NCBI RefSeq assembly: GCF_005943945.1
Contig: NZ_CP040710.1
Span: 1,995,001 to 2,059,000, forward strand
DNA from: Aggregatimonas sangjinii
Lineage (GTDB): Bacteria; Bacteroidota; Bacteroidia; Flavobacteriales; Flavobacteriaceae
Reading direction: 5' to 3'
Length of the DNA stretch: 64,000 nt
Made by a program: the position numbers and the translations under genes. Below the pieces are notes generated by a model. The model was not told the origin of the DNA. It searched no databases and saw only the letters and a list, made by a program, of their open reading frames with translations. Shown piece by piece: positions 8,653 to 59,338 of the stretch; the first letter of the stretch is position 1; the number at the start of each line of letters is the position of its first letter.

Positions 8653-8660
8653 TAAATTTG
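8653..8660 (+). promoter_or_regulatory. Bacteroidetes -7 promoter box of cysE
   Basis: TAAATTTG matches the TAnnTTTG consensus exactly and lies 19 bases before the cysE ATG at 8680. No good TTG is found at the ideal 19-base spacing upstream. Confidence 0.55.
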
Positions 8661-8679
8661 AATAGTCTACTAATTTACT

Positions 8680-10348: not shown

Positions 10349-10369
10349 GAACGCCCCTATTAGGCGTTC
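10349..10369. terminator. Inverted repeat between convergent cysM and Nramp genes
   Basis: The arms GAACGCC and GGCGTTC flank a 7-base loop directly after the cysM stop. No T run follows on the plus strand, so terminator function is only possible. Confidence 0.35.
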
Positions 10370-10442
10370 ACCTGCCTTAATTTCTATTCATAAAACAATG
10401 CAATAGCTTCGGACGTACGGCGCACGGCGAAATATCGCAAAA

Positions 10443-41547: not shown

Positions 41548-41555
41548 TAAGTTTG
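41548..41555 (+). promoter_or_regulatory. Bacteroidetes -7 promoter box of the nuclease gene
   Basis: TAAGTTTG fits TAnnTTTG and lies 24 bases before the ATG at 41580. Confidence 0.6.
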
Positions 41556-41579
41556 CGAACCCTTAAAAAATCGAGAACT

Positions 41580-44500
41580 ATGAAAAAAAACTACTTTTTA
41601 AAGAATATGCTGTCCACAGTTTTCATCTTGTGTGGTATACTTTTCGGTAATGCGCAAGTACCAAGTTATTACAGCGGTACCGATATTTCCGTTTCTGGCG
41701 AGGCCCTGGAGTCAAACCTCTCTACTTTGATCACTGATACACAGATAACGGAACTGACCTATACCCCGGGTGTTTGGGATGCTTTAAAGCAAACCGACCT
41801 AGATCCTTCAAATCCTGACAAGGTGTTATTGATTTACGGTTATGACGATACCGATTCCGATAGTACCAATGACCGTACACGTTCGAAAGACATGAATGGC
41901 GGCAATAATGGGGATTGGAACAGGGAACATACCTACCCGAGATCGTTGGGCAATCCCAATTTGGGGAGCGAAGGGCCCGGATCGGATGCACATCACTTAC
42001 GGGCATCCGACGTGCAATTCAATGGCGTACGCGGCAATCGGCCGTATATAGACGATACGGGAAATGCGAAAGCCATCAACAATGGTTTTTACCCAGGAGA
42101 TGAATGGAAAGGTGATGTGGCACGTATGATGATGTACATGTACCTCCGTTATGGAGATCGCTGTTTACCCAACGTGGTTGGTCTTGGCAATTCAACCTTT
42201 GATCCCGACATGCGGGATATTTTCCTGGAATGGAACGCCGAAGACCCCGTATCGCAGGTAGAAATCAATAGGAACATCCTATTGGAAGGTATTCAAGGTA
42301 ATAGAAACCCATTTATTGACAATCCCTCCTTTGCCACACGAATTTGGGGTGGGCCGCAGGCCGAAGATCGTTTTGCCAACGCAAGTCCCAGTATCGTTAT
42401 CAATGAAGTTGACGCTGATCAGACGAGTACAGATGCCACGGAATTCATTGAACTTTTTGATGGCGGTTTCGGGAACAGCTCGCTGGATGGCCTCGTAGTG
42501 GTTTTATACAACGGAAATAATGACCAAAGCTATAACGCCATAGATTTAGATGGTTTCACTACTGATGCCAACGGCTATTTTGTAATCGGTAGCGCCGGGG
42601 TGCCGAATGTTAACTTAGAGGCATTTACGACCAACGGTGTTCAGAACGGTGCCGATGCGGTAGCACTCTACGAAGATGATGCGGCCAACTTTCCCTCCGG
42701 GTCGGCCATAACGACCACCAATCTCTTAGACGCACTGGTTTACGGCACTAGTGATGGTGACGACATTGAACTTCTTGCATTACTGAATTCCGGGCAACCT
42801 CAGATAGATGAGAATTTGGGAGGCAACGCAGGTGAAAACTCTATGCAACGGATTCCTAATGGCGCTGGCGGGGCAAGAAACACGCTTGGGTACGAGCTCG
42901 CACCACCAACACCGGGTGCCGTAAACACGACCATCGTTATTGTCGATACGGAAAGCCCAAGTACGCCGGAAAATGTAATGGCCAGTGCGATAACTGCGGA
43001 AGGTGCTACTTTATCGTGGAATCCGTCTACCGACAATATTGGTGTTACGGAATATCGCGTTTTCAATGGCACGACCGAACAGGGCAGTACAACCGAAACC
43101 AGTTTTATGGTATCCGGTCTTATGCCGAATACCGAGTATCTATTGAGTGTGGTGGCCCTAGATGCTGCCGGAAACGCTTCCGACCCTAGTACAAACGTAG
43201 TATTTACGACTTTGGAAGCCCCTACGCCAAGTGGTGAAACCGCGCTGCTGATTACCGGGGTCTTTGATGGGCCTCTAACTGGGGGCGTCCCCAAGGGAGT
43301 TGAGCTGTATGTAACCGACGATATAACCGACCTTAGTAGCTACGGATTGGGATCTGCCAATAATGGCGGCGGTACCGATGGCGAGGAATTTACCTTTCCA
43401 ACGGTTTCGGCCACCGCAGGCAGTTTCATCTATGTTTCATCCGAGGTACCTGGCTTTCAGGAGTTTTTCGGATTTGAACCGGATTATACCTCAGGGGCAA
43501 TGGCCATTAATGGCGATGATGCCATAGAGTTATTCAAAGATGGGGCAGTTGTTGATATCTTTGGCGAAATAGCCATGGACGGTACTGGTCAACCTTGGGA
43601 GCATTCCGATGGATGGGCTTATAGAAATGAAAACACTGGGCCTAATGGAAGCTCTTTTTCCCTGGCCGATTGGACATTCAGCGGCCCTAACGCCTTTGAT
43701 GGACAAAGTGCGAATAGTACGGCAACTAGTCCTTTTCCCATTGGTACATATATGATAACGGGTATTGCACAAATTATCATCAATGAATTGGATGCTGATA
43801 CCGCAGGTACAGATGCCTTGGAGTTCATTGAATTATACGATGGTGGTGCCGGCAACACGGCGCTTGATGGCCTAGTGATCGTGCTGTATAATGGTAGTGA
43901 CAATCAGAGTTATAACGAGGCCATCGACCTAGATGGTTTTACCACCGACGAAAATGGATATTTTGTTATCGGAAGCGCATTGGTGGCCAATGTCGACCTG
44001 GTCGCTTTCACCACGAACGGTATTCAAAACGGTGCCGATGCGGCCGCTCTTTATCAAGCTGATGCAACCGATTTCCCGAACGACACGCCGTTACTGATCA
44101 ATGAAACACTTTTAGATGCCGTTGTTTATGATACGAGTGACAGTGATGATGAGGAACTCCTACAACTATTGAACACTGGGGAATTGCAGGTGAATGAGGA
44201 CGGGATGGAGAACAAAGATGGGGATTCCGTTCAACGTATTCCGAACGGATCGGGTGGCGCTAGAAATACGGCCAGCTATACCCAGGACACGCCCACTCCG
44301 GGTGCTGAAAACGGTGCAGTGCCACCAGCTCCGGAAACCATATCAGTTCTTGAGGCACGAGCGGCGGAATTTGGCGAGTTGGTTACCGTTAGCGGAGTGT
44401 TAACGGTCTCAGATCAATTCGGCGGCTCGGCATACCTTCAGGATGCCACCGCCGGAATCGCCATTTTCGATGAGAAAGTCCATGGTGACGGCAATTTTAT

Positions 44501-46817: not shown

Positions 46818-46902
46818 GGAGGAATGGCAGAGTGGTCGAATGCACTAGTCTTGAAAACTAGCGAGGGTCACACCTCCGGGGGTTCGAATCCCTCTTCCTC
46901 CG
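46818..46902 (+). tRNA. tRNA-Ser (anticodon UGA)
   Basis: The 85-base cloverleaf has acceptor stem GGAGGAA/TTCCTCC with discriminator G, an anticodon stem CTAGT/ACTAG around loop CTTGAAA (anticodon TGA), a long variable arm typical of serine tRNAs and a T arm GGGGGTTCGAATCCCTC. CCA is not encoded. The 3' end (46881-46903) is repeated three more times downstream and served as the integration site for the accessory region. Confidence 0.95.
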
Positions 46903-46903
46903 C
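46881..46903 (+). other. Attachment site attL within the tRNA-Ser 3' end
   Basis: The T-arm and acceptor 3' side plus CGC form the core shared with 56651-56673 (23 positions, 2 differences), and in shorter form with 56832-56849 and 59030-59045. The common core is CCTCTTCCTCCGC. Confidence 0.85.
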
Positions 46904-46906
46904 AGA

Positions 46907-46943
46907 AAGCCCCGTTATCGTAATGATAACGGGGCTTATCTTT
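46907..46943 (+). terminator. Terminator of tRNA-Ser, carried by the element
   Basis: AAGCCCCGTTATC and GATAACGGGGCTT flank GTAAT, followed by ATCTTTT. It lies just inside the element, so it replaced the original tRNA terminator on integration. Confidence 0.8.
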
Positions 46944-46947
46944 TCTG

Positions 46948-46968
46948 GTTGACAGTATAGTTGACAGT
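46948..46968 (+). repeat. Left arm-site-like repeat of the integrative element
   Basis: GTTGACAGT occurs twice with 3 bases between (ATA). The same arrangement, same orientation and 19 of 21 positions identical, lies at 56523-56543 inside the right end. Confidence 0.75.
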
Positions 46969-47010
46969 TCTCAGAAATTTAACTCATATTTTAACCCTTT
47001 GTGAGCCATA

Positions 47011-48228
47011 TTACTTGAATTTTCTAAAAGCCTGTACTGTTTGATATATACCATAGCCAACTGCTATACGACCAACAAAATCAAAAATATATGCGATACC
47101 ATAAAATGTAGGGGTCAAACTTTCCAAATATGATAAGCTGCGAGCCGGATTTAAAAAAGTAAAAATAAACTTCACTCCGTTAATGAACTTGCTTTCATCA
47201 AGTTTACCAGTGCAGTAACAGATATTATTTTGATAAGCCTCTGTAAAAGTTAAAGTAAGTAAACCGAATATAAACGCTACGCCTAGAGTAAACAAAATAC
47301 CATTCCTGAAATCTGAGCGATGATGATTTGATAACCTGTTTAACCATAATATATACTTATCGCCCTTATTTACATTTGAGTCTTTGCTCTTCAACCTTTT
47401 ATTCACCAGTTCTTTTAATGCCGTTTTCTCTTCCCTAAGCATTAAAATCGAGTCTGAATAATTGCCAATATCTTCAAAGGATTTTTTTAAAATCTGAAAA
47501 GTATGCACTTTATTAACCAAAGGTATTATATGCTTTTCATCTATATAATTTTGATATTGTTTATCATTCTCACCAACGTACACAGTAATAAATTCCTTAA
47601 AATCAAATTTTAAATCAAAAGGTTTTAAAGTTCCTGAAATTATAGTTTGTGACAAATCTATTCCTTTTTTAAACTTTGTTCTTGCAAATATAACTTTAGA
47701 TGAAAATAGCGCATAAGTAAATAAAACATTCCCTACGAATGTTGCCATACTGAATACTGTAGTTTTATTAAAATCTGTCTTATAAAAAGTTATATCGTTT
47801 TCAAATGTAGTCAACCAAAAATCTGTTAAGCCGTTAAATGTAGTATTGTCAAAGGATGCCTGACTTACTCGGCAATCATGCATGATAAACTTTTTGCTAA
47901 ATTTAATGTCATCAAATTGTAGTTTTTTTTGAAAATCACACTCTTTAAAAGAGACGCTTTCACCAAATACATTAGTTTCAATTTGATTAAAACTATTACC
48001 ATCCTCACTATTTTCTTCAACTACTGTTACTAATGGAATCCCTTTGCAAAAAGATATGGGGTTGATGAACTCACAGTCAATAAAAATAATTTCTCTGTGC
48101 TGCGGTTCCAATTCGATGATAAAATCGAATTTTTTAGAATTAAACTGGATAGGGTCTGAATTACCTAGACCCTCAGCCAAATTAAATTTAGCTCTATACT
48201 CATCTTCTGATATTGGTTGTCTGGCCAT
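47011..48228 (-). CDS. Membrane protein with degenerate pentapeptide-like repeats, unknown cargo
   Basis: This 405-residue protein begins with a soluble N-terminal part (1-220) built of five-residue-period repeats with central Phe (SFKECDF, FDDIKFSKKF, ASFDNTTFNGLTDF, ITFYKTDFNKTTVF, VIFARTKFKKGIDL), a pattern that suggests a right-handed quadrilateral beta-helix. A helical linker follows (KSFEDIGNYSDSILMLREEKTALKELVNKRL), then two C-terminal membrane segments (GILFTLGVAFIFGLLTLTF and FYGIAYIFDFVGRIAVGYGIYQ). Similar pentapeptide-plus-membrane arrangements exist, but no function is established. It is the cargo gene farthest from the integrase, typical of defence or accessory genes. Confidence 0.7.
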   Translation of the reverse strand: MARQPISEDEYRAKFNLAEGLGNSDPIQFNSKKFDFIIELEPQHREIIFIDCEFINPISFCKGIPLVTVVEENSEDGNSFNQIETNVFGESVSFKECDFQKKLQFDDIKFSKKFIMHDCRVSQASFDNTTFNGLTDFWLTTFENDITFYKTDFNKTTVFSMATFVGNVLFTYALFSSKVIFARTKFKKGIDLSQTIISGTLKPFDLKFDFKEFITVYVGENDKQYQNYIDEKHIIPLVNKVHTFQILKKSFEDIGNYSDSILMLREEKTALKELVNKRLKSKDSNVNKGDKYILWLNRLSNHHRSDFRNGILFTLGVAFIFGLLTLTFTEAYQNNICYCTGKLDESKFINGVKFIFTFLNPARSLSYLESLTPTFYGIAYIFDFVGRIAVGYGIYQTVQAFRKFK

Positions 48229-48375
48229 TTAGTTCCTTTCTTACTAACAATTTTTAAATAAATGTACATACCCAAATTAATGCCAATCTATTTTAATTTA
48301 TTTAGTCCTTACACTGTTAATTGTTGGTTTGCATTGGGGAATTCATTTTACAAAATCAAAATTTAATTGAGCTAC

Positions 48376-48882
48376 TTAAAAATTTAAACCGTCATATCTA
48401 TAATCTTCCATATATTCAAATGACTCGTCAACCTCTGTTTTTGATATTGGATACTCTCTAATATTTCGAGCAACTCGCTTTAACTTAACTACGAAGTCAG
48501 TTTTGTGATATCTAATTAACGAATTGGCAAACTCAAATTTATCTACCTCTTGCATATCTAAAAAATATACAAAATCTAATATGAACCATGTGAACACGTT
48601 ATACAATTTTATGTATGATTCAAGATTTTCACAGTCTAGAATCATATAATCATATGGCGAATTAAAGTCAATCAGTTTATCTAATAAATTTTCACCCCAT
48701 CTTGGCTCAATGTCATTATCAATCATTTGACAATAGAAATCTTTGTTGTAGTCTTTTTCTATTTCGATGAAATAATTTTTTTCGCATACTTCTATATGAC
48801 TTGAATACTGGTAAGATAATATGTTCTTAAAATATTCGCTGATGGTTATTATGTTATATCTATTTTCAAAGTAATTAGGCAT
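48376..48882 (-). CDS. Unknown 168-residue cargo protein
   Basis: This acidic, aromatic-rich protein is predicted soluble and mostly helical (MPNYFENRYNIITISEYFKNIL..., FTWFILDFVYFLDMQEVDKFEF). No known domain, signal or catalytic motif is visible. It lies 48 bases downstream of the restriction enzyme gene and 147 bases from the pentapeptide-like gene, all on the minus strand, so it may share their transcript. Base composition matches the rest of the element. Confidence 0.55.
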   Translation of the reverse strand: MPNYFENRYNIITISEYFKNILSYQYSSHIEVCEKNYFIEIEKDYNKDFYCQMIDNDIEPRWGENLLDKLIDFNSPYDYMILDCENLESYIKLYNVFTWFILDFVYFLDMQEVDKFEFANSLIRYHKTDFVVKLKRVARNIREYPISKTEVDESFEYMEDYRYDGLNF

Positions 48883-48930
48883 TGGAAAATTTTAAATTAT
48901 TTCGTAAACTTTAATGAACCGAATTGAATG

Positions 48931-51900
48931 CTATCCTTCCTCCACAACTTTAATTTCTTCTTTAGATAATCCATATAATCTATAGACCATTTTATTAATA
49001 CTCTCCTCTAATGATTTTGTATCGGCTTTAGGGTCGACATTCTTAATTTTCAAAATTTCTGTTACTGTATGCTCAATCTCTTTATAAATATATTTATCAA
49101 AGGCAATCGGTAAAGACTCTAATTCTGTATTGCTTACATTATTATTACTTGAAGTTTTTTTAAACCTCCACTGGAAGAGTTTTGAATTAAGCAAACCTGC
49201 AAGTACATTTAATGAATAAGGTTCTTCACTTATAACGGAATTAGTTGAGTCCGCAAAATAGATTTTGGGATTCACAATTGTAGCTACGATTCTCAGCTTC
49301 TCATCAACACCAGTTATGCGTTGAATACCAATTCTTTTAATTTCAGATAACTGATTTACTCTTCCATCTTCATTATAAAGTTTCTCATCGAAATACTCTT
49401 TCTCCCCTTGACTTAATTTCTTGTTTATTCTATAAGGACCAATTTGAACTCCTTTTAAAAAATCAGCATGACCAGGTTTATTAGAGATGTACCTCCTGTT
49501 CAAAGTTTGATTAATTTCCCCTCTATTAGTTCTTATCTCATCAATATCTCTAATTACTTCGAACTGATGAATTTTTTTTAAAATTATCCATTCAGACTCA
49601 GAAACGAGAGGAATTGATAATCTATAACTATCAAATTCCAGTAGCTCAGTGAAATTTGTTACGTAAGACTTCTTTTCGTCGTCAAATGATTTAAATGGGT
49701 AGGTATGAACATTAATTATTTTGTCATCTAATGCGGTATGCGAATCATTTACACCAAAAAATATTAAAGTTGATTGTTTAGCATCCTCAAATACCCTTTT
49801 TGATGGGATATCCTTTTGCGGAAAACAATGAAGGGTAATCCCAGAAAAATTTTCGCTGATAAATTTTCTCGTCGAAAAGAGACTGTTGTCACCAATCAAT
49901 GTTAGTGGTATAATATAACTAATGTTGCTATCAGGTCTCGTAATGTCCTTACAGAGGTGGATAAACAATCTATAAAGATTTAGTTTCCCACCTTCAACAG
50001 ACTTGAATCTCTGTGTGATTTTTGAATACTCTAATATATCTTGATATGGCTGAAGAGATGAATTTCGTTGTTTCTCCAAAACGGCATACGGTGGGTTTCC
50101 AATTAAAGCGTCAAAACCAATGAAGCTACCATCATCGGCTAGTACCTCTGGAAACTCAAAACGCCACTCAAAAGCATTAAGATAAATAGCATTATTTACG
50201 ATTTCTTGTTTTTTTAAGTATGCTTCTTCGGTAGCTTTTTTCAACTCCTTTAGACGCTCTTTCTCTGCTTTGGTTATTTTCTCACCAAACTGTTTTAAGT
50301 TCTTAATTTGTTCTTCCTTAAGAAACAATCGATTTTTGGCTTTCTCCAAGACTGTAATAAATTTACTGTCTAAAGTACTTTTAAAATTATCCTTTACTTC
50401 ATCTATTATTTCTAAAACTTCACGTTTACGGTCTTTACTATTAGTTTCTTTATATTCTGAAACTGCATTTTTATAATCAGTAAATGTATATTTTAGTTTT
50501 GGGTTCTTTTTATTTCTAAATGCATCTTTTAAATCATCGTCTAACTTAAAACGACTGATTAATGAATTACCACACTTTATATTTATATCTATGTTGGGTA
50601 GTGTTTGCAATCTATTTTCTTTGGTATAGTAGGCGTTTTTAAGTAATTCTATCCATAAACGCAATCGACATATTTTAACGGAGTTCGGATTAATATCGAC
50701 GCCAAACAAACAATTTTCTATGAGGGTTTGTTTCTGATGAAATAGGGTATGTTGTATGCGTACACTTTCTTTATCGTCAGGGTTATACTCAAATAATGAA
50801 CCCCTGTCATCTATAACGTAAAGCTCATCATTTACTATTTCTATATCGCAACGTAGCGGTATTCCTTTTGCATCAACCAAAATTCCCAATTCGTTTTTTA
50901 TGACAATTAATTCATTTAATGCACTGACTAGAAAATGCCCAGATCCTACGGCAGGGTCACATAGGCGTAGACTATTTACAACCTTATTAAAACGTTCAAG
51001 GTCATCTGTTTTAAAGTATTTGCTACAGTAAGACTGTAAGTCCTTAAAAGTTTCTATCTGGTCGTTTACTAAAACATTAAATTTTTGAACGACAGCACGC
51101 CTCAACGTTTCTCTGCACATATACATTGTTATGTAAGCAGGGGTATAAAACGAACCCTCCTTATAACCATTTATTTTCTCAAATATTAATCCTAATACGG
51201 ATGCATTAATTAGCGATTTATTTTCTTGCTCGTCTTCTATGCCCTCGTTACCATCGGTAGCAAAGTCATAGGCTTCCAAAAACTTGAATAAATACTCTAA
51301 GGTTGAGAGCTTACCTTTTAATTGTTTGTTGTTATTATCTTTTAAGACTGTATTATTATACAATGTAATATCATCATTATTTAATGCTGATATTTCAAAG
51401 GCTTCGTTCTCTAATGTATTACGCTCGAATAAAGAACTATTGAGATACGGTATATCCTTATACTTCTCTTTATATTTAGGATGTCTCTCGTCTTCATTTT
51501 TGGCTAGCGCAGAGAAAAATAAATCGTTTAACTCGTCATAATCACTTATGAATGAAGCATTTAGAAATTTATATTTCGGATTTTGCTTATGGTAGGCTAA
51601 TAATTGAGATTCTAATAACTTTAAAAATAGAATACGATTTACCCAAGTCAAACACAATTCCAATCCTGCGTTAAAGGATTTCTCTGTGTTGTTTTCTATA
51701 CTTTCAATATTGGATAAGTAGTCTCTATCTTCGAGAATAACAATCGTATTCTCTAATAGTGAGGCATAATCTCTATCTTTTTCAGACTTACGACTAATAA
51801 TTTTTTTGCCTTTGTCTTTTACCTCCTCTAAACCAATAATATGTAATAACTCATTATAGAACGCCTTATTAAGTTGATTACTATCATTACCGAAAGAATG

Positions 51901-52599
51901 ACCTAGTATATGGACATCTGAAAAGATTTTATATAATGTATTAAGATGTGCATCACTTAATTTATTGAAATTGGTTTTAGAGAAATCTAAATGAGCAAAA
52001 GGTAATTCCTGCTCGACCTCAGCAATATATTTTTTAGCAATTTCGTTATAAAAAAGTTCATTTTTAGTAGTATCCTTTAAGCCATCTCTAAAGTCTCTAT
52101 ACTCTCTTAAGAGTGCCTTATTCTTGTAGAAATAGTTATAGAAATCTTCAGCTTTAAATAAATACCATTCATAACCATTGGTAGCAATAAGGTGCTTAAT
52201 ATTATTATTTTCATTGTCTACTCTTTCACGTAAGTAATAGAGTAATAATTCTTGTAATGCTTTACGATTAAGATTATTCTCTGTTAAGAACTCGGCCTTA
52301 TTACTTGGTTTTTTGGCCTCAATGATTACACCAACATCTGAATTAGCCGTACCATCTAGATAAATTGCTAAATCAATACGTTCTTTTGTATTAATGTAAT
52401 TATTGTTATAAAATGTATTAGTAAAGAAATCCTTGAAGTGGGATTTTATATGCTCTTCACTTTCGCCATTGTCATCACTTAATTTGACCGCATTTATACA
52501 ATTCTGTAGTTGACCTATAAGATGAGTTACTTTTTTACGTAAAGGTTTATGTTTTCTATAAGCAGGATTAAGTGCTTTTCTGGTGTTGGTTTTGTTCAT
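48931..52599 (-). CDS. Single-chain type IIG restriction-modification enzyme
   Basis: This 1,222-residue protein combines cutting and methylation. The N-terminal domain (about residues 70-100) carries a PD-(D/E)xK-like core, ERIDLAIYL then VIIEAKKP. The methyltransferase core has motif I RLCDPAVGSGHF (about 548) and motif IV GNPPYAVLE (about 833), the N6-adenine type. A charged helical insertion (about 690-800) lies between them and the C-terminal third (about 880-1222) is the likely DNA-recognition region. No separate specificity or nuclease gene is needed. It belongs to the Eco57I-like/BREX-associated methylase superfamily by motifs but no BREX genes are present. It protects the element or the host against phage and rival DNA. 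Confidence 0.88.
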   Translation of the reverse strand: MNKTNTRKALNPAYRKHKPLRKKVTHLIGQLQNCINAVKLSDDNGESEEHIKSHFKDFFTNTFYNNNYINTKERIDLAIYLDGTANSDVGVIIEAKKPSNKAEFLTENNLNRKALQELLLYYLRERVDNENNNIKHLIATNGYEWYLFKAEDFYNYFYKNKALLREYRDFRDGLKDTTKNELFYNEIAKKYIAEVEQELPFAHLDFSKTNFNKLSDAHLNTLYKIFSDVHILGHSFGNDSNQLNKAFYNELLHIIGLEEVKDKGKKIISRKSEKDRDYASLLENTIVILEDRDYLSNIESIENNTEKSFNAGLELCLTWVNRILFLKLLESQLLAYHKQNPKYKFLNASFISDYDELNDLFFSALAKNEDERHPKYKEKYKDIPYLNSSLFERNTLENEAFEISALNNDDITLYNNTVLKDNNNKQLKGKLSTLEYLFKFLEAYDFATDGNEGIEDEQENKSLINASVLGLIFEKINGYKEGSFYTPAYITMYMCRETLRRAVVQKFNVLVNDQIETFKDLQSYCSKYFKTDDLERFNKVVNSLRLCDPAVGSGHFLVSALNELIVIKNELGILVDAKGIPLRCDIEIVNDELYVIDDRGSLFEYNPDDKESVRIQHTLFHQKQTLIENCLFGVDINPNSVKICRLRLWIELLKNAYYTKENRLQTLPNIDINIKCGNSLISRFKLDDDLKDAFRNKKNPKLKYTFTDYKNAVSEYKETNSKDRKREVLEIIDEVKDNFKSTLDSKFITVLEKAKNRLFLKEEQIKNLKQFGEKITKAEKERLKELKKATEEAYLKKQEIVNNAIYLNAFEWRFEFPEVLADDGSFIGFDALIGNPPYAVLEKQRNSSLQPYQDILEYSKITQRFKSVEGGKLNLYRLFIHLCKDITRPDSNISYIIPLTLIGDNSLFSTRKFISENFSGITLHCFPQKDIPSKRVFEDAKQSTLIFFGVNDSHTALDDKIINVHTYPFKSFDDEKKSYVTNFTELLEFDSYRLSIPLVSESEWIILKKIHQFEVIRDIDEIRTNRGEINQTLNRRYISNKPGHADFLKGVQIGPYRINKKLSQGEKEYFDEKLYNEDGRVNQLSEIKRIGIQRITGVDEKLRIVATIVNPKIYFADSTNSVISEEPYSLNVLAGLLNSKLFQWRFKKTSSNNNVSNTELESLPIAFDKYIYKEIEHTVTEILKIKNVDPKADTKSLEESINKMVYRLYGLSKEEIKVVEEG

Positions 52600-52638
52600 T
52601 CGTTATTTTAAACCTAACTTCTTGAGAGTACATATTAG

Positions 52639-52652
52639 GAATAGTACTATTC
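52639..52652. promoter_or_regulatory. 14-bp perfect palindrome upstream of the restriction enzyme gene
   Basis: GAATAGTACTATTC lies 40 bases before the restriction enzyme ATG (minus strand). It could be an operator for autoregulation, as controller proteins use in restriction systems, but no controller gene is seen next to it. Confidence 0.4.
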
Positions 52653-52747
52653 TTAAGCGCAGTATTTTGATTAGCCTTAAAAATATAAATGTTTGGTGTA
52701 AAATAATACTTACAACTAAAAAATACGCAAATGAATTTGAGAAAACA

Positions 52748-53797
52748 CTAACAAAGCTCCTTATCTATTTGGGTATTTAAAATAAATTCTAAGTAGCTAT
52801 CCATCTCATATTCGGTTAGCATTCTTCCAGTATCATTATTGATCCAGTCCATAAGTTTAAAATTATACTCCCATTTTTCAAAATCATCCACTACCCTAGC
52901 AGATTTTGCAGCCATTTCACTTTTTGGCAGTTTAAAACCAAACCTATTATATAAATGATGTTTATCAAATGCTTTATAGATAGTATGTAATGCATTTGCG
53001 TAGATCTGCAAACCTGTCATATCTCCTTTTTTTCGCTTTCTCTTATGTGTTGGGTCTGGGTCGCTTAATATTTTTGCTCCATACTTTATAACCTCAACCA
53101 AATCCCTTTTAGTTTCTTTCACTGCACGTATATGTTGCCCTTTTTCACCTACATTAAATTCGTTCTTATTCAGTTCTTTCTTCCATTCTTGTTTAATGTA
53201 CAAACCGATTGCCCTAGTTGGAACTATCAAATGGTAGTGAGGGTTATATGTTCTTTTAGTTGCATTGAAATTACATTCTAATGATTTTATACCAATAATT
53301 TTCATTCCCTTACCTCTTATGTGCCTTTTGTTACACCTATCTTTGATTCTTTGAAAGGCTAGTACCATTTGATTTACCCTAGAATCCAAATCTTTAGCTT
53401 TAACAGATTTTAGGGTAATAGTTAAAAGATGAGGTTCTTCCCATTGAGAAAGGATCGGATAATATTTTTTTATCATCATTGCTTTTCTTATACCGCAACA
53501 AGTGGCACACCATCTATTTTTGCACCAATTACAATAATACCTCCCGTCTTTACTTATAAGTTTAGTCTGACAGTGGAAGGTATTGTAATACCGCTTTATT
53601 ATTTCAGTTTCTCCTTTTTCTTTTGCCACATCTATCATTGCTAAAACCAATTGATTTGTGATTGCCTTTTTGTTGGCTCTTTTTAGAAGTGAGGGATTAT
53701 TCTTAATTGGAGTACCAGTGCCAGTAATGACGGTCGTTTCCAGCTTATTAGAGAAACTAGATGTCCCATTTAGTGCCAATGTATAGATACTATCCAT
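52748..53797 (-). CDS. HUH-type rolling-circle replication initiator (Rep_1-like)
   Basis: This 349-residue protein has a zinc-finger-like segment (YYCNWCKNRWCATCCGIRK), strand LLTITLKSV, the HUH metal site NPHYHLIVP (about residues 181-190) and a catalytic Tyr motif VIKYGAKIL (about 238), the order seen in Rep proteins of rolling-circle plasmids such as pUB110. It would nick DNA at a double-strand origin. In an integrated element this suggests an excised circle that replicates, or mobilisation by nicking. The origin itself was not located. Confidence 0.8.
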   Translation of the reverse strand: MDSIYTLALNGTSSFSNKLETTVITGTGTPIKNNPSLLKRANKKAITNQLVLAMIDVAKEKGETEIIKRYYNTFHCQTKLISKDGRYYCNWCKNRWCATCCGIRKAMMIKKYYPILSQWEEPHLLTITLKSVKAKDLDSRVNQMVLAFQRIKDRCNKRHIRGKGMKIIGIKSLECNFNATKRTYNPHYHLIVPTRAIGLYIKQEWKKELNKNEFNVGEKGQHIRAVKETKRDLVEVIKYGAKILSDPDPTHKRKRKKGDMTGLQIYANALHTIYKAFDKHHLYNRFGFKLPKSEMAAKSARVVDDFEKWEYNFKLMDWINNDTGRMLTEYEMDSYLEFILNTQIDKELC

Positions 53798-53831
53798 TTC
53801 CGAGGTTCGTTTTTAGAGATACAAAAAGAGG

Positions 53832-54107
53832 TTAAGCCCTTTTGTATTTCATGGATTTAACCTCAGTTAATGCTTCATCTAGATCTGCTCTTTTAATGAG
53901 CAAAACCCTACCAAGTCTCTTAGCAGAAAAGAAACCTCTTTTAATATAATTGTGTACAGATTGCTCTGAGACTTTCAGAACCTCAGCGGCCTCCTTTACG
54001 GTAAGGTTCTCGGATTTTTCTTCCACTGCCTCTTTGCATACAAATTCCAGTAAAAGATTTTCGATACTTGACAATCTCTGGTCGATTGTCTCAAATGGAT
54101 TTTTCAT
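53832..54107 (-). CDS. Excisionase-like helix-turn-helix protein
   Basis: This 91-residue protein has a helical N-terminus and a MerR/excisionase-type helix-turn-helix (LTVKEAAEVLKVSEQSVHNYIKRGFFSAKRLGRVLLIKRADLDEAL), the HTH_17 pattern common in Bacteroidota mobile elements. It probably directs excision by the integrase and may regulate the rep gene 34 bases downstream. Confidence 0.85.
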   Translation of the reverse strand: MKNPFETIDQRLSSIENLLLEFVCKEAVEEKSENLTVKEAAEVLKVSEQSVHNYIKRGFFSAKRLGRVLLIKRADLDEALTEVKSMKYKRA

Positions 54108-54181
54108 ATCACCTAAATTTTAGGCAATACTATAATTAGTGGGTAAGATTATTGAAGTGTGGTAACCATGTGGTAGGTACA

Positions 54182-55234
54182 CTAATCTATTATAGCCAAT
54201 TTAAGCTCATCTAAGGCTAACTTTTTGGCTTTTGGGTAAGTGGCCAACATATTATCTAAAACGTACTCTATATTCCTTGTCTTGGTATTCTTTAATCGTT
54301 CAGTTTTGCTTGAATAAATTTTATTGTAGGCTTTTTGAATATTGGTGTCGTCCTTACCAAATAGCTCCCCTATTTCCTTCCATGCCTTTTTTGTCGGAAA
54401 GAGATTATTAGTTTTTAGTTCCTTAGTCTCTGAAGTATAGTAGCAGTAATAAGCTATATCTGTTCTATTGGGTCTTGCACTGACAATACCACCAAAGTTT
54501 TTGGGGCGACTTGGTTTTGCATATTGGTCGAGCCATAGTTTCTCTTTGTAAAATTCCTTTTTCTTCGAAAAAAATTCTCTCTGTAACTCCAATCTACTCA
54601 AATCTTCACTGTTGTAGAGCTTAATTTTTACAAGCGACGTATCAATCGAATCGATAGTATCATTAATAATATTCAAATTTTTTAATGAATCGGACTTTGA
54701 AAAAATAGCTGAAATTAGCATAAAACCATTTTCCAATAGTTTGTTACAGAGTTTTGACAAATCAAATACCATTATGCCTTTACCTTTGATATAACCAAAA
54801 CAGGCAAAAAACTGAAATGTCAATTTCTTTAGGAAAATTTTATTTTGAAACAATAACTCGTTGCTTTTTATAATTCTTATGAACTCATTTGCAGCGAGTA
54901 GGTAAGTTACTCCCATTTGGGACCGATAAAAATCGCAATTGCCTAACACAGTAACGCCAGCTTCTTTTGGAAATGAATCTTTATCAAAGAGTTCAGGTTT
55001 GCATTTTCTGCAATTTTCTCCGACATTTTCAGGTAAGGCACTGGTCATGGCTTTTTCTAAGTTGCCATACAGTTTTAGAAAAGTATTTTTTGATTGAAGA
55101 AATTCTATTAAGTAATCATTACAGCTTCTTGTCACGATTTGTGAGACCTTTTTCCCTTTATTCATTTTTATGGCTACAGCCATTTCACTCTTTTTTAAAG
55201 GCTCAAATTCTACTATTATGTATTTATTCTTCAT
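54182..55234 (-). CDS. Unknown 350-residue mobile-element protein
   Basis: This gene starts immediately at the integrase stop (TAA followed by ATG), so it is translated by coupling. The protein is basic and helical, with a possible CRKC zinc-binding pair (ENCRKCKPEL) in the first third and a DNA-binding-like C-terminus (KKAWKEIGELFGKDDTNIQKAYNKIY). Proteins at this position next to integrases in Bacteroidota elements are usually unassigned. It could assist integration or replication; no function is claimed. Confidence 0.55.
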   Translation of the reverse strand: MKNKYIIVEFEPLKKSEMAVAIKMNKGKKVSQIVTRSCNDYLIEFLQSKNTFLKLYGNLEKAMTSALPENVGENCRKCKPELFDKDSFPKEAGVTVLGNCDFYRSQMGVTYLLAANEFIRIIKSNELLFQNKIFLKKLTFQFFACFGYIKGKGIMVFDLSKLCNKLLENGFMLISAIFSKSDSLKNLNIINDTIDSIDTSLVKIKLYNSEDLSRLELQREFFSKKKEFYKEKLWLDQYAKPSRPKNFGGIVSARPNRTDIAYYCYYTSETKELKTNNLFPTKKAWKEIGELFGKDDTNIQKAYNKIYSSKTERLKNTKTRNIEYVLDNMLATYPKAKKLALDELKLAIID

Positions 55235-56509
55235 TTAACCTGTAACTGAGATTGGAGCTTTTTCCATTTTCCACACTGTTTTCATGAATTCTTTTTTATC
55301 ATCATTGTTTGGCTTGTAATACTTATTAAAAACTTCTAAGCTTCGATGCCCCGTAAAGCTCATAATCACCTTATCGGGAATCTTTTTATTCTTCATTATC
55401 GTAATAAAGCTTCTCCGTGCGGTATGGGATGAAATACGCTCATTTAAGGGCTTAATCTGTTCCTTTAACTCTCTACCTATCTTAATGGTCTTTTTAATAT
55501 CTTGGGTATAACCAATAGCCCCGAATACTTCTTTGATATAATCATTGAATTTTTGGTTGGATAGCTTGGGTAGATTGTAGTCATACTTTTTCAGAATATA
55601 CGTAGAGAACTCATTTAGTGGTACTTCTAAAGATTTGTCTGTATTCTTTTGGTCTCTTACTTTGATAACACCGTTATGAACATCTTTTTTGGCTACTTTA
55701 GAGTAGTTACTATACCTCATACCAGTAGCACAACCAAAAACAAATAAGTCTCTCACCTTTTCTAGCTTTCGATTTGCACTAAAATCAAACTCAAAAACCT
55801 CCTTAACTTCATCCAATGTTAATGCGACCTCATCGGTCTGTTGCGCCTTTGGTGCCTTAAACTTTTGAAAATCCAGTTTATAATTATAACCGTTTTCAAC
55901 CGACCAGTACAGGAAGGTTTTTAATAGACCTATATTTCTTCTTAGAGTATTGGCAGAATGTTCTTTGACCGTTATGCAATACTCGACTAAGTCATTATAA
56001 AAGGCACTTGTAAATTGATTAAAATGTAGTTTTTTACCCTTCCAATCTTCAAAGTCAACCAGTAATTTTTTATTGTAGGTATATCTGCTAATCGTAGAAA
56101 TAGAATTTGCCCCTTCGGTAAAATCGTTTCGCTTCTCAGTCAGAAAGATATCATACACTTCAAAGAATTTACTACTAATAGCTTTCGTACGCTTAAACTG
56201 GGTGTCAAAATCACCTTTAACCACAGCAATGGTTATTTCTCGATTAGATAGCTTGTAACTTTGGATGAGGTCAGAAAAATAATTTGAATAACGGTCTAAC
56301 TGCCGCTTGATACCCCTATGTCTGTTGGCATTTGCGCTGCGTCCGTTGAGGTCGTTTGGATGTCGATGCTTAAAATCCCATTCCTTTGGGTTGACACTTT
56401 CACCAGTAGAATACACAAATTTCCTACCCTCATTTCGAAAATATGCCGAGAATAATATTAGGGTTTCCCCGTCTTTCTTGGGTTCTTTGAGATTGAAGGT
56501 GAATTTCAT
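55235..56509 (-). CDS. int: Tyrosine recombinase (integrase)
   Basis: This 424-residue phage-type integrase has an N-terminal arm-binding domain (MKFTFNLKEPKKDGETLILF), a SAM-like core-binding domain and a C-terminal catalytic domain with Arg in CATGMRYSNYSKV (about 262), HTARRSF (His-x-x-Arg, about 362), TGHRS and the nucleophile Tyr in FNKYYKP (about 398). All catalytic residues are present. Its position at the right end, 142 bases from attR, fits integration at the tRNA-Ser 3' end. Confidence 0.95.
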   Translation of the reverse strand: MKFTFNLKEPKKDGETLILFSAYFRNEGRKFVYSTGESVNPKEWDFKHRHPNDLNGRSANANRHRGIKRQLDRYSNYFSDLIQSYKLSNREITIAVVKGDFDTQFKRTKAISSKFFEVYDIFLTEKRNDFTEGANSISTISRYTYNKKLLVDFEDWKGKKLHFNQFTSAFYNDLVEYCITVKEHSANTLRRNIGLLKTFLYWSVENGYNYKLDFQKFKAPKAQQTDEVALTLDEVKEVFEFDFSANRKLEKVRDLFVFGCATGMRYSNYSKVAKKDVHNGVIKVRDQKNTDKSLEVPLNEFSTYILKKYDYNLPKLSNQKFNDYIKEVFGAIGYTQDIKKTIKIGRELKEQIKPLNERISSHTARRSFITIMKNKKIPDKVIMSFTGHRSLEVFNKYYKPNNDDKKEFMKTVWKMEKAPISVTG

Positions 56510-56522
56510 AGCTTATTTGTCA

Positions 56523-56543
56523 GTTGACAGAATCGTTGACAGT
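56523..56543 (+). repeat. Right arm-site-like repeat of the integrative element
   Basis: GTTGACAGA then ATC then GTTGACAGT, in the same orientation as 46948-46968. It lies between the integrase start codon and attR and probably binds the integrase N-terminal domain. Confidence 0.75.
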
Positions 56544-56650
56544 AAAGGTATGATTTGTTATAGGTTTAGAGTCAAATAGATATTAGGAATTATCAACAAC
56601 CTCTTGATATATAGGTTGTTTAGATAATTAGTATCCAATAGGATATATAA

Positions 56651-56673
56651 GGTTCAAAACCCTCTTCCTCCGC
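56651..56673 (+). other. Attachment site attR of the 9.8-kb element
   Basis: Matches the tRNA-Ser 3' end (46881-46903) at 21 of 23 positions. It is followed at 56681-56716 by a hairpin (AAAGCTCGGTTTTC/GAAAATCGGGCTTTT) and T run, like a tRNA terminator. Confidence 0.85.
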
Positions 56674-56680
56674 TTAGAGC

Positions 56681-56716
56681 AAAGCTCGGTTTTCGTAGAA
56701 AATCGGGCTTTTGTTT
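56681..56716 (+). terminator. Terminator-like hairpin following the second att copy
   Basis: Near-complementary arms with loop GTA, followed by TTGTTTTT. It was probably the tRNA-Ser terminator before the 9.8-kb element entered. Confidence 0.7.
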
Positions 56717-56831
56717 TTAGGAACGTTGAAAACCCAAGTTTTCAATAGTGGATAAATGCAAAAGCCCGAAAATCGCCAAGCGATTTCGAGCTTTATTATC
56801 AGGTGGGGAGGTCGTAAGGAAAACCGAAGGT

Positions 56832-56849
56832 AATCCCTCTTCCTCCGCC
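56832..56849 (+). other. Third copy of the tRNA-Ser 3' end (att)
   Basis: AATCCCTCTTCCTCCGCC, identical in the core to the tRNA. It is followed by an AAACCC/GGGTTTT hairpin (56858-56884). About 75 bases from here onward resemble imperfectly the sequence after the fourth copy at 59030. Confidence 0.8.
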
Positions 56850-56857
56850 AAAAAAGG

Positions 56858-56884
56858 AAACCCACAACTATCGTTTTGGGTTTT
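56858..56884 (+). terminator. Terminator-like hairpin following the third att copy
   Basis: AAACCC and GGGTTTT arms around a 14-base loop, then GGTTT. Weaker than the hairpins after copies one and two. Confidence 0.5.
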
Positions 56885-56984
56885 GGTTTAAATTATAGCT
56901 GAGCCAAGGTGAATACTTAAATCAGTTTCATTTAAATTTTTAAGCCTTTCTTTTATGGTAGATAGTTGATTCATTCTTTAGCCA

Positions 56985-58247
56985 CTATTCTATTCTCTTT
57001 ATTTCTTTTTGAATCGCTTTTACTATATGTCCTGGTATGTTTAATTCTTCAGCGATCTCAATCCACTTAGGAATCAATGCCTGTACCTCCTCAATAATAC
57101 CTTTTGGATTTTTAATAACAAATTCTTCTGCTATCGCAAGCATATCTTTCATACCGATCTCTGTCCGCTTTCCATAAATAGACAAAGCCCTAGAGGTAGC
57201 TTTAAATGTGAATAGCGGATTGAGCGCATAAGTCAAATCATATGCAGGTGCTAAATTCCAACTATCTTTTTCTTTGTCATAAATAAAACTATGGTTCTTT
57301 AAATGGTCGTCTATATTTCTAAATACGACATTAAAAACCATTCGCTTGAACAATTGCTGTAAATCTTTATGTGGAACTTCTAATCCTAAGGCCACTTTAA
57401 AAACATTCTCATAGGAAGAGTTCTCCGGTTGACTTTTAAAATCCCAACCCGTTAAACCTGTTACGGTTAATATGTGCTGTTTTTCTCCGTGTTGTCTATC
57501 ATATCTAAGTGTTGCAAAGTGCTTTTTTTCTATCAGCTTTGATGGCATCATATCAACACCTGCTTCTTGCGCTAATAAATAATAGGCATATTCTACTTTT
57601 TCTTTATTGTAGCCATCGCTATCATCAAGGTGTAGCTTAACTAGATAGTGATTGTAGTCCTCGCTTGTTTCCCTATCTCCAGCGATGATTTTACCAGTTT
57701 CTTTATGTTCGGATATTAAGATTTTAGGTCTAGCTCCACCTGCAGACGTTCCTATTTTGAAAACGTTAAGCAAAGACAATTCATCAAGGGCTGCCCCGGA
57801 TGTATCTTCCTTAAGTCTTAATACTTTTTCTAAGATGTTAATGATTTCATCGATGTTTATAGATGATGTAGTAGGTAGCTCTTTTACGGGTTTGTACTCT
57901 ATGGCTCCCATACCGCGATCCGCTACATAAGCCAACTGTTGCAATGGTGTTACCTTTTGGATGCCTCTTGCTGTTAACCATTCTTGGAAAATGATATTTC
58001 CAAAAGTGTCTGGCAGGGAATCGGCTATCATTGGTGGCAAACCTTGAAACGTATCATGTTGGTATTCCGTAAATACCTGCGCTGGTTTGGTACGTTTGAA
58101 AATAAAAGGAAATAGTTTTGAAAATTCGCCACTGTCCAGGAATTCTGGATTGTATTGAAAAAAGGATTTGCCCTGATTTATATCATAGCCTAATTTGCCA
58201 ATCTCTTGGCCAAATACAATAATATCTATGATTTTATCCCTAGCCAT
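56985..58247 (-). CDS. hipA: HipA toxin, serine/threonine kinase
   Basis: HipA phosphorylates glutamyl-tRNA synthetase in E. coli and induces persistence. The 420-residue protein has the HipA N-terminal domain, the P-loop-like autophosphorylation segment GTSAGGARPKIL, the catalytic NIDDHLKNHSF (about 312) and the metal-binding AYDLTYALN. All kinase signatures look intact. It follows hipB by 3 bases in a hipB-hipA operon. Confidence 0.93.
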   Translation of the reverse strand: MARDKIIDIIVFGQEIGKLGYDINQGKSFFQYNPEFLDSGEFSKLFPFIFKRTKPAQVFTEYQHDTFQGLPPMIADSLPDTFGNIIFQEWLTARGIQKVTPLQQLAYVADRGMGAIEYKPVKELPTTSSINIDEIINILEKVLRLKEDTSGAALDELSLLNVFKIGTSAGGARPKILISEHKETGKIIAGDRETSEDYNHYLVKLHLDDSDGYNKEKVEYAYYLLAQEAGVDMMPSKLIEKKHFATLRYDRQHGEKQHILTVTGLTGWDFKSQPENSSYENVFKVALGLEVPHKDLQQLFKRMVFNVVFRNIDDHLKNHSFIYDKEKDSWNLAPAYDLTYALNPLFTFKATSRALSIYGKRTEIGMKDMLAIAEEFVIKNPKGIIEEVQALIPKWIEIAEELNIPGHIVKAIQKEIKRIE

Positions 58248-58250
58248 CTT

Positions 58251-58514
58251 TTAATACAATGAAATATCATTTTGATCAACAATGACTTTATCTATTTGAT
58301 TGGCAATAGATTGTAATAATCCAAAATGGTTTGCTACTTTTAGAACATTATCAAGTGTAGCATTTTTACCATTCTCGATGTTTTGAATGGTGGTGCTAGA
58401 GACATCAAGCACTTCCGCAAGTTCGTCTCTAGATAGCTCATTTGATTTACGAAGTGCCTTACAGGCTTCACCAATCTTGACTTTCACATCTTTTATTGTA
58501 GTAATTTCTAACAT
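58251..58514 (-). CDS. hipB: HipB antitoxin, XRE-type regulator
   Basis: This 87-residue DNA-binding protein has a Cro/C1 helix-turn-helix (LRKSNELSRDELAEVLDVSSTTIQNIENGKN). It neutralises HipA and represses the hipBA promoter. Upstream, inverted half-sites TATAATGGT (58525-58533) and ACCATTATA (58561-58569) flank and overlap the promoter box at 58554-58561. Confidence 0.93.
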   Translation of the reverse strand: MLEITTIKDVKVKIGEACKALRKSNELSRDELAEVLDVSSTTIQNIENGKNATLDNVLKVANHFGLLQSIANQIDKVIVDQNDISLY

Positions 58515-58524
58515 ATTGTACCAA

Positions 58525-58569
58525 TATAATGGTTAAATATAGGTATTTAAATCCAAATTTACCATTATA
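58525..58569 (-). promoter_or_regulatory. hipBA promoter and operator
   Basis: Minus-strand TAAATTTG (58554-58561) is a perfect -7 box. It touches one of two inverted 9-base half-sites, TATAATGGT (58525-58533) and ACCATTATA (58561-58569), so HipB bound there would block RNA polymerase. Confidence 0.6.
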
Positions 58570-58752
58570 ACACCAAATGAATTGTTAGTAATATTACTAT
58601 TCCGAGCTGTATCGTATGAAAGTAGAGCCATTCAACTTTAATAAACTTTCGAGAAAAGTACCGATTATCGGTACTAATCCAATGAGTTTTCTACGACTTG
58701 TTCCTTAGAATATAGTTTGAAATGATTTATAGGAATTTGCGCATCTATCTTA

Positions 58753-58913
58753 GAGACTGTTTGGAAATATCTCGCTTATTTTCTTAGGGCCTCTTTTTGC
58801 GCCTTATTTCGTTAAAATTTTTGACCGTAGCGCTGCTATGCTGAAAAATTTTGCCTCATAATGCATCAAAAATAGACCATAACAATTCTAACGACATATT
58901 TCCAAACAGTCTC
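58753..58913 (-). mobile_element. 161-bp MITE, copy B
   Basis: GAGACTGTTTGGAAATAT opens and ATATTTCCAAACAGTCTC closes the element, flanked by TTA on both sides (58750-58752, 58914-58916). Inverted relative to copy A, same length, about 89 percent identical by eye. Confidence 0.88.
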
Positions 58914-59029
58914 TTATAAAGTATTCTTGAAATTCTTAAATTTTTCTCAAAAAGGGCCTAATTTGGTGTCAGTAAATTTTGAAGGTCCTTTAAGCCCTAT
59001 ATACGCTATAAAAACGAGAATTTGGATAG

Positions 59030-59045
59030 TTCCTCTTCCTCCGCC
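59030..59045 (+). other. Fourth, outermost copy of the tRNA-Ser 3' end (att)
   Basis: TTCCTCTTCCTCCGCC, the rightmost repeat. The following bases (GAAACCCACAACTATC) match those after the third copy, so this was probably the original chromosomal junction. Confidence 0.75.
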
Positions 59046-59338
59046 AAAATGAAACCCACAACTATCTTTGTTGATTTTTTATTTTAAATTGTAGCTGATG
59101 CTACGGTTCAAAGTTATATTCTAAACCAAAAACGAGGCATACTTTTTTAATGTGGCCAGAGTTCTGTGACAGCTCAAAATTGTTAACGAATTATTCGATA
59201 CCGTCAAGCTTGTCTAATGAATAATCCTAACTTCCACGGAAAATTTTTAAAGGTATGGAATGACTTCTTGCGATGTACAAATCGCAAGGGGCAAGTCTGC
59301 AAAAATCCTAGGATGCGGTACCCATACCTTATATAACT

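What the first reader, a model, noticed from the sequence alone, without database searches (positions are those of the whole stretch)
46881..59045. Four copies of the tRNA-Ser 3' end: a stack of successive insertions
The tRNA-Ser(UGA) 3' end is repeated at 56651, 56832 and 59030 in the same orientation. Copies one and two are each followed by a clear, different terminator-like hairpin, copy three by a weaker one, suggesting that each incoming element restored the tRNA and also supplied its own terminator. The intervals hold a 9.8-kb element, a 158-bp remnant and a 2.2-kb hipBA segment, so the locus records at least three entries and partial losses.
Basis: partly seen in the sequence, partly recalled or inferred. 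Interest (0 to 1): 0.72.

Follow-up and report, generated by a model that had tools for sequence, protein, structure and literature searches.

The report
Tiny structured units behind tRNA genes
The repeated tRNA tips behind this gene come from one ordinary integrating element plus copies of a tiny folded DNA unit that also sits behind other tRNA genes in related bacteria, often ending in a copy of the end of whichever tRNA it follows.

Summary
The four tRNA-Ser(UGA) 3' ends are real but are not equal integration scars. Copies 0 and 1 bound an ordinary 9,770-bp tyrosine-integrase element with paired arm-type repeats and restriction-modification cargo. The "158-bp remnant" (copies 1 to 2) is a complete 175-bp unit of a structured, covarying family. 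A covariance model built from nine tRNA-Ser units of other genera finds it, finds units behind tRNA-Arg(ACG) and tRNA-Arg(TCT) of this genome, and hits 85 of 247 genomes of the class (35 families by model hits). Of 28 other-genome loci returned, 26 lie behind a tRNA (16 families). Many units end in a 17-20-nt copy of the local tRNA's own end (Ser, three Arg, Pro, Met, Lys, Gln); most class-wide ones keep only its start. In one MAG the same body (90% identical) sits behind two tRNA-Arg genes, each with its own tRNA end. Orthologous loci differ by presence or absence. Copies 2 and 3 begin two weak, probably decayed units with hipBA between. Best reading: a mobile-looking mini-element that duplicates its tRNA target, enzyme unknown. 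E. coli tyrT/rtT repeats are the closest analogue; homology is not shown.

The parts
46818..46903 (+). tRNA-Ser(UGA); core copy 0 at 46887-46903 (AATCCCTCTTCCTCCGC)
   Evidence: ARAGORN
46904..56673 (.). 9,770-bp integrative element, from its left end behind the tRNA to the core at its right end (copy 1)
   Evidence: core spacing, gene content, arm repeats
46948..46968 (+). left pair of arm-type repeats GTTGACAG-N4-GTTGACAGT
47011..48228 (-). pentapeptide-repeat protein, 405 aa
   Evidence: Pfam PF13576
48376..48882 (-). 168-aa protein, no family found
48931..52599 (-). type IIG restriction-modification enzyme, 1,222 aa
   Evidence: Pfam DUF7149, DUF7814, Eco57I; PADLOC REase_MTase_IIG
52748..53797 (-). 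Rep_1-type replication protein, 349 aa
   Evidence: Pfam PF01446
53832..54107 (-). excisionase-type HTH_17 protein, 91 aa
54182..55234 (-). 350-aa protein, no Pfam or NCBIfam match
55235..56509 (-). tyrosine integrase, 424 aa
   Evidence: Pfam PF00589 and Arm-DNA-bind_5
56523..56543 (+). right pair of arm-type repeats, same layout as the left pair
56651..56673 (+). copy 1 (right end of the element), 21 of 23 nt equal to the tRNA end
56674..56848 (+). unit 1: body 56674-56831 (folded, tRNA-type terminator first) and copy 2 of the tRNA end 56832-56848; period 175
   Evidence: R1 36.5 bits, E 1e-8; fold z -4.55; 76% identical to the G005 unit
56849..56976 (+). probable decayed unit 2, starting behind copy 2
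   Evidence: R1 30.0 bits; a reverse-strand R1 reading at 56752-56889 scores 31.3, so this is weak
56985..58247 (-). HipA-family protein, 420 aa
   Evidence: Pfam PF07804
58251..58514 (-). HipB-like HTH protein, 87 aa
   Evidence: Pfam PF01381; NCBIfam couple_hipB below cut-off
59028..59044 (+). copy 3 of the tRNA end, 15 of 17 nt
59045..59196 (+). probable decayed unit 3, starting behind copy 3
   Evidence: R1 19.7 bits, E 6e-4; a reverse-strand reading at 58954-59083 scores 18.7, so this is weak

Best explanation
The locus is a tRNA-anchored set of tiny structured units into which one ordinary tyrosine-integrase element has inserted. The units (periods seen 114-190 bp, mostly 160-180) belong to a family that the model finds in 35 families of the class. 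Each unit is a folded body (an outer stem P1 around three hairpins P2-P4, P2 being a terminator right behind the tRNA), a tail of about 45 nt, and a small hairpin ending ..GGT-AATCC or similar that in many cases runs on into a 17-20-nt copy of the local tRNA's 3' end. Proposed mechanism: a body enters directly behind a tRNA gene; staggered cuts at the T-loop and just past the discriminator base duplicate about 17 bp of target, so the tRNA stays whole and its former terminator ends up behind the second copy. Repeated entry builds arrays; second copies decay or serve as spare attB sites for integrases. Shown: structure and covariation, tRNA adjacency, locally matched copies, presence/absence among relatives, one body behind different tRNAs. 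Inferred: mobility, staggered-cut insertion, an enzyme acting in trans, spare-attB use.
For: Covariation: 20 of 50 pairs change on both sides in nine units, 0 of 500 shuffles as high; 48 of 50 in 48 model-fitted hits. Fold z -4.55, -5.22, -6.19. tRNA adjacency: 26 of 28 other-genome loci; 18 of 40 tail-motif matches lie 60-340 nt behind a same-strand tRNA against 101 of 7,800 random positions in the same loci. Local copies: exact repeat of 16 nt or more 100-350 nt upstream in 18 of 40 against 37 of 7,800; Arg(ACG) of this genome 19 nt, period 177. Same body, different tRNA: L262 and L274 of one MAG, bodies 90% identical, tRNA-derived ends 14 of 17, each equal to its own tRNA; G520 Arg(TCG) and Arg(ACG) bodies 80% identical. 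Presence/absence: tRNA-Arg(ACG) in the genus; tRNA-Lys in the genus of G548, 1 of 20 loci.
Against: No movement was observed and no enzyme identified; no occupied/empty pair with alignable flanks was found. A repeat of 12 nt or more is present in only 5 of 28 class-wide loci. Weak R1 hits are often not units: 9 of 17 new places have neither a called tRNA nor a repeat. R1 weights the terminator hairpin, so hits of under about 40 bits may be a terminator plus chance, and many units also score on the opposite strand. In an unbiased set, only 2 of 100 tRNA-Ser loci have a short tandem core. Units at one tRNA in different species can be more alike than units at different tRNAs in one species, as vertical inheritance with tandem duplication would also give.
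Confidence: 0.58

Rival explanations
1. The units are part of the tRNA transcription unit, as in the E. coli tyrT/rtT repeats: a resident, functional 3' element (terminator or small RNA) that changes copy number by recombination between repeats and is inherited vertically with its tRNA.
For: Same architecture in E. coli: tRNA-Tyr 3' ends at an exact 178-bp period, rttR annotated there; rtT RNA listed as a 175-bp VNTR in Salmonella (PMC2658671, one passage). Strong covariation. Tandem identical units in L110. Type-A tRNA-Ser units are alike across genera.
Against: One body behind two tRNA-Arg genes with local ends; presence in 1 of 20 orthologous tRNA-Lys loci; the first hairpin reads as a terminator, so the rest of the unit would need read-through (by eye).
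Confidence: 0.27
2. The units are mini-elements moved in trans by resident tyrosine integrases: body plus tRNA-end core act as an attP, so they are integrase-dependent and not target-duplicating insertions.
For: tRNA T-arm and 3' end are the usual integrase target (general knowledge). Unit cores and integrase-element cores are the same sequence at this tRNA. Left ends of window-type elements sit at unit cores in G005 and G009 (no integrase gene in the stretches held).
Against: The window unit has no TTGACAG repeats: the five window matches are at 40656 and the two element ends. Both copies match the local tRNA at two different tRNAs of one genome, not expected if the element brings the core. 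Many tRNA kinds are used.
Confidence: 0.1
3. One reading: at least three successive integrase-type entries, the 175-bp interval being the remnant of a longer element.
For: Cores in the same orientation; true stacking in G003; a 10.5-kb island in another genus (L182) ends in GGATAGTTC before its core, as the hipBA segment does (by eye).
Against: The 175-bp interval matches a family of fixed layout and length; G005 has it directly behind the tRNA.
Confidence: 0.05

Closest known systems
E. coli tyrT/tyrV 178-bp repeats (rtT RNA, Rfam RtT by recall)
   Same: Units right behind a tRNA, each ending in a copy of the tRNA 3' end that starts at AATCC; period 178; copy-number variation (175-bp VNTR in Salmonella, PMC2658671).
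   Different: One tRNA in enterobacteria as far as annotated here; no R1 match at E <= 0.1. The present family follows many tRNA kinds.
MITEs and other non-autonomous palindromic repeats
   Same: Short, gene-free, strongly folded, same body at several places, flanked by direct repeats.
   Different: No terminal inverted repeats seen by eye; insertion position fixed behind tRNA genes; the direct repeat is about 17-20 nt of tRNA; no parent transposase known.
Casposons
   Same: Target-duplicating insertion that can use tRNA-Leu-like sites (PMC10359463, passages).
   Different: Kilobase elements with Cas1-solo, polymerase and TIRs; 14-nt TSD in that paper. The units have no genes.
tRNA-targeting integrative elements with a tyrosine integrase
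   Same: The 9,770-bp element: integrase next to its right end, excisionase-like HTH, Rep, cargo, restored tRNA 3' end.
   Different: The 175-bp unit has neither an integrase nor the arm repeats.

Membership tests
tRNA-targeting tyrosine-integrase element (9,770-bp interval) | tyrosine integrase inside | tested here: met
   Pfam PF00589 at 55235-56509
tRNA-targeting tyrosine-integrase element (9,770-bp interval) | bounded by copies of the tRNA 3' end | tested here: met
tRNA-targeting tyrosine-integrase element (9,770-bp interval) | arm-type repeats at both ends | tested here: met
   (repeats present; binding not tested)
tRNA-targeting tyrosine-integrase element (9,770-bp interval) | excision to a circle | not testable with these tools
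   needs PCR or reads
rtT/tyrT repeat | tandem units carrying the tRNA 3' end, about 178 bp | tested here: met
rtT/tyrT repeat | sequence or structure homology to the E. coli unit | tested here: not met
   R1 has no hit on L250 at E <= 0.1; no Rfam family at its gathering score in eight loci
rtT/tyrT repeat | transcribed with the tRNA | not testable with these tools
   no RNA data
MITE | short, gene-free, repeated at several places of a genome | tested here: met
MITE | terminal inverted repeats shared with an autonomous transposon | not tested
   no TIR seen by eye; no search for a parent transposon was run
casposon | Cas1-solo encoded inside the element | tested here: not met
   175-bp unit holds no such gene; Cas1 elsewhere in the genome was not searched
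Rfam family of structured RNA | match at the family's gathering score | tested here: not met
   (eight loci): tRNA only; searches list only matches below gathering score

The most novel reading that the evidence does not exclude
An unrecognised class of minimal mobile elements in Bacteroidia (class name inferred): gene-free folded DNA units of about 160 nt, inserted at one fixed position behind tRNA genes of many kinds with duplication of the stretch from T-loop to 3' end (about 17 nt), building tRNA-anchored arrays, and moved by an unknown trans-acting enzyme that recognises tRNA genes as a class. The E. coli tyrT repeats would be an outlying relic of the same or a convergent process.
Probability: 0.42. 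Interest if true: 0.9.

Novelty: new variant of a known kind. Interest (0 to 1): 0.72.

Why it matters
tRNA genes are the main docking sites of bacterial islands. A family of gene-free units that follows tRNA genes of many kinds and carries a copy of each tRNA's end would be a source of false att sites in island prediction, would offer spare docking sites that may shield tRNAs, and, if mobile, would imply an enzyme that recognises tRNA genes as a class. It also gives comparative material for the E. coli tyrT 178-bp repeats, whose origin becomes testable by strain comparison.

Tried and rejected
Rejected: that the copies are chance, and that the 175-bp interval is a deletion remnant. Rejected as a generality: my early impression that a spacing of about 175 bp is common at tRNA-Ser. 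Those loci had been picked by a terminator-matched query. In 100 survey loci from 100 genera, 8 have a further core copy (at least 11 of 12 nt) within the stretch held (for L135 and L215 only 2 and 8 bases), spacings 126 to 11,560, two of them short; the 8,737 one (L147) is a second full tRNA end. With R1, 14 of 97 survey loci (L135, L206, L215 not given) have a tRNA-strand hit at E <= 1e-6, 13 directly at the tRNA end and one behind a 126-bp unit; some of these (for example L185) look like little more than a terminator, and L140 has an opposite-strand hit of similar strength.

Looked for and not found: homology to E. coli rtT by R1; an Rfam family at gathering score (weak matches below it, the best E 0.00013 on the tRNA's reverse strand); a circular form of the G003 relative (no end overlap); an occupied/empty pair with alignable flanks. 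An acceptor-stem mimic in the tail, seen by eye in some tRNA-Ser units, did not seem to hold in other types and was dropped without a computation. Paper searches listed nothing that by title or abstract start describes these units; lists were capped and subscription journals are mostly missing, so this is no proof of absence.

Left out of analyses: 7 of 48 rows of A4 (reverse-strand or partial hits), while searches use all 48. Of the 13 units of A1, 9 went into A2 and R1 (L111, L112, L118, L020 left out for poor alignment). Of the 46 rows, 19 of the 20 loci returned were re-read with flanks (L244, the reverse reading of L235, left out); of 20 more places, 17 are new and L382, L387 and L388 repeat L236, L234 and L246. 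Of the 30 loci, 28 were read (L310 and L230 already known). One search reads 20 places of five genomes. R1 E-values come from a short calibration.
Full report
WHAT IS THERE. The 3' end of tRNA-Ser(UGA) (46818-46903) is repeated on the same strand with an exact 13-nt core at 46891, 56661, 56836 and 59032; with up to 2 mismatches the window has 6 matches and 0 of 100 shuffles reach that. Spacings of the aligned copies are 9,770, 175 and 2,196 bp. The genome is one 4.72-Mb contig. Congener G007 has a contig of 1,309,483 bases, the length of record CANMFO010000002.1, an uncultured Flavobacteriaceae bacterium, so I take the family to be Flavobacteriaceae and the class to be Bacteroidia (inference).

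THE 9,770-BP INTERVAL is an ordinary integrative element. On the minus strand from its right end: tyrosine integrase with Arm-DNA-bind_5, a 350-aa unknown, an excisionase-type HTH_17 protein, a Rep_1 protein, a 1,222-aa type IIG restriction-modification enzyme, a 168-aa unknown and a pentapeptide-repeat protein. Both ends carry GTTGACAG-N4-GTTGACAGT (46948 and 56523); the only other TTGACAG in the window, on either strand, is at 40656. Terminators like its left end recur at other tRNA-Ser cores. A related element (integrase 83% identical) lies on G003 contig C46, where its right-end core is followed directly by another left end. In G003 the tRNA is followed by a different element, a core, and a window-type left end.

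THE 175-BP INTERVAL is not a remnant. In sister species G005 the same unit (76% identical) lies directly behind the tRNA, and G009 has another unit with a 176-bp period. Elsewhere in the family, units with periods of 159-187 bp stand behind tRNA-Ser, each ending in the tRNA core. These were found through a terminator-matched query; the unbiased survey shows short tandem cores in 2 of 100 loci. The bodies fold better than shuffles (window unit z -4.55, L122 -5.22, L110 -6.19). In nine units, 20 of 50 pairs change on both sides; 0 of 500 shuffles match, and slid versions give 11 at most.

A FAMILY BEHIND MANY tRNAs. Model R1 was built from those nine tRNA-Ser units of other genera. It recovers the window unit (36.5 bits) and gives 30.0 and 19.7 bits behind copies 2 and 3; reverse-strand readings of the same stretches score 31.3 and 18.7, so the two decayed units are probable, not certain. 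In the genus it hits 9 of 10 genomes at E <= 0.01. Its best hit there is the unit behind tRNA-Arg(ACG) of this genome, which ends in a 19-nt copy of that tRNA's end, period 177. Another lies behind tRNA-Arg(TCT) with a decayed copy, and a hit falls at tRNA-Pro(GGG) without a copy. Of the 19 loci read, 8 show a repeat of 16 nt or more (one, L249, is a unit-tail repeat in a tandem array) and 11 do not. Of 17 further places, 8 have a same-strand tRNA upstream, two of these (Pro(GGG) of G001 and G002) with 18-19-nt copies, and 9 have neither; weak hits are thus often not units. Other exact copies: Met of G007, 20 nt, period 173, and Arg(ACG) of G007 and G002, 17 nt.

AN INDEPENDENT ROUTE. The exact tail motif GGRAMACCGAAGGTAATCC was scanned over the genome collection without reference to tRNAs: 39 stretches, 40 matches, all but two (Chloroflexota, Nostoc) in Bacteroidetes records. 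18 of 40 lie 60-340 nt behind a same-strand tRNA end against 101 of 7,800 random positions in the same loci; 18 of 40 have an exact repeat of 16 nt or more 100-350 nt upstream against 37 of 7,800; 25 of 40 lie inside an R1 hit at E <= 0.01. In one Maribacter MAG (bin.172), tRNA-Arg(ACG) and tRNA-Arg(TCG) are each followed by a unit: the bodies are 90% identical (shuffled mean 48%), the tRNA-derived ends agree at 14 of 17 positions, and each equals its own tRNA.

CLASS-WIDE. R1 hits 85 of 247 genomes of the class at E <= 1e-4, in 35 families by my count of the listing. 28 of these genomes were checked with flanks: in 26 the best hit lies behind a same-strand tRNA, in 24 within -1 to +5 nt of its end: Met, Ser (gct, tga, gga), Lys, Arg (tcg, acg), Cys, Pro (ggg, tgg), Gln, His; these 26 come from 16 families. 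A repeat of 12 nt or more is present in 5 of 28, with exact 17-nt copies in Lys and Gln; most of the rest share little more than AATCC and T-stem letters. In 48 aligned hits 90.4% of cells pair and 48 of 50 pairs change on both sides (the alignment is fitted to the model, and a few rows are reverse or partial hits). An outer stem P1 outside the model is moderately supported: 69.6% paired against 65.5% shuffled, score 0.255 against 0.197, but no excess in pairs with a change on both sides. Together this gives a cloverleaf-like body.

GAIN AND LOSS. At tRNA-Arg(ACG), nine of ten genomes of the genus were read (G004 not): four have units (G000 with further cores at 177 and 472, G007 at 167 and 338, G002 at 163, G001 with a decayed core); G003, G006, G008 and G009 have no further core and no R1 hit at the tRNA end; the G005 contig stops at the tRNA end. 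R1 misses the G002 unit on the tRNA strand. At tRNA-Lys in the genus of G548, all 20 loci share the same 17-nt tRNA end, and only G548 has a second copy, period 170. R1 gives 65.5 bits there; in the other 19 its only tRNA-strand hit at a tRNA end is marginal (L359, 15.4 bits), with some opposite-strand hits up to 24.7 bits. Behind G548's second copy follows what looks by eye like an ordinary terminator. In G007 two different units are stacked; the distal one is 91% identical to the unit of CANLWN010000002.1 (L278), where a second unit, 97% identical, lies 2 kb away.

MECHANISM. Body plus copy of the local tRNA end, both copies equal to the local tRNA even when one body sits at two tRNAs, is what a target-duplicating insertion gives: staggered cuts near T-loop position 58 and just past the discriminator base (position names from general knowledge). 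An element-borne integrase core should leave hybrid copies. The enzyme is unknown and movement was not observed. Second copies would decay because only the tRNA's own copy is selected. Unit cores may be used by integrases: in G005 and G009 a window-type left end sits at the unit's distal core (no integrase in the stretches held), while in the window the element lies in front of the unit. How hipBA entered is open.

COMPARISON WITH THE KNOWN. E. coli tyrV/tyrT has tRNA-Tyr ends with an exact 178-bp period and right ends ..GAGT-AATCC; rtT RNA is listed as a 175-bp VNTR in Salmonella (PMC2658671, one passage). The architecture is the same; R1 does not match it. What I recall of the tyrT literature beyond this comes from no call. 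Casposons duplicate targets and can use tRNA-Leu-like sites (PMC10359463, passages) but carry genes and TIRs. Of PMC2864571 I saw passages only; none of those shown describes a motif behind tRNAs.

VERDICT.

Noticed in passing
window 58745-58921: Imperfect palindrome with 87-nt arms (70% complementary, 3 nt apart) inside the hipBA segment, ending in AGACTGTTTGGAAATA / TATTTCCAAACAGTCT; looks like a separate palindromic repeat.
   Followed up: no
window 41553-46700: 1,715-aa secreted nuclease-like protein upstream of the tRNA; in G009 its homologue lies downstream of the tRNA in the opposite orientation and in G003, G005, G008 on other contigs, so the neighbourhood is rearranged.
   Followed up: partly
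G005:C21, G090:C46 (L135), G043:C3 (L215), G127:C41 (L114): Draft contigs that stop at, or within a few to about 120 bases behind, a tRNA 3' end, as would happen at repeated units.
   Followed up: no
L178 300-10989 and L226 345-1728 (oriented): Intervals between tRNA-Ser cores in two other genera: a 10.7-kb island whose ORFs look like a restriction system by eye, and a 1.37-kb interval with one listed ORF of 174 aa.
   Followed up: no
L258, L266, L184: Shorter units (periods 140, 114, 126) with a single terminator hairpin and the same tail, possibly a reduced form of the family.
   Followed up: no
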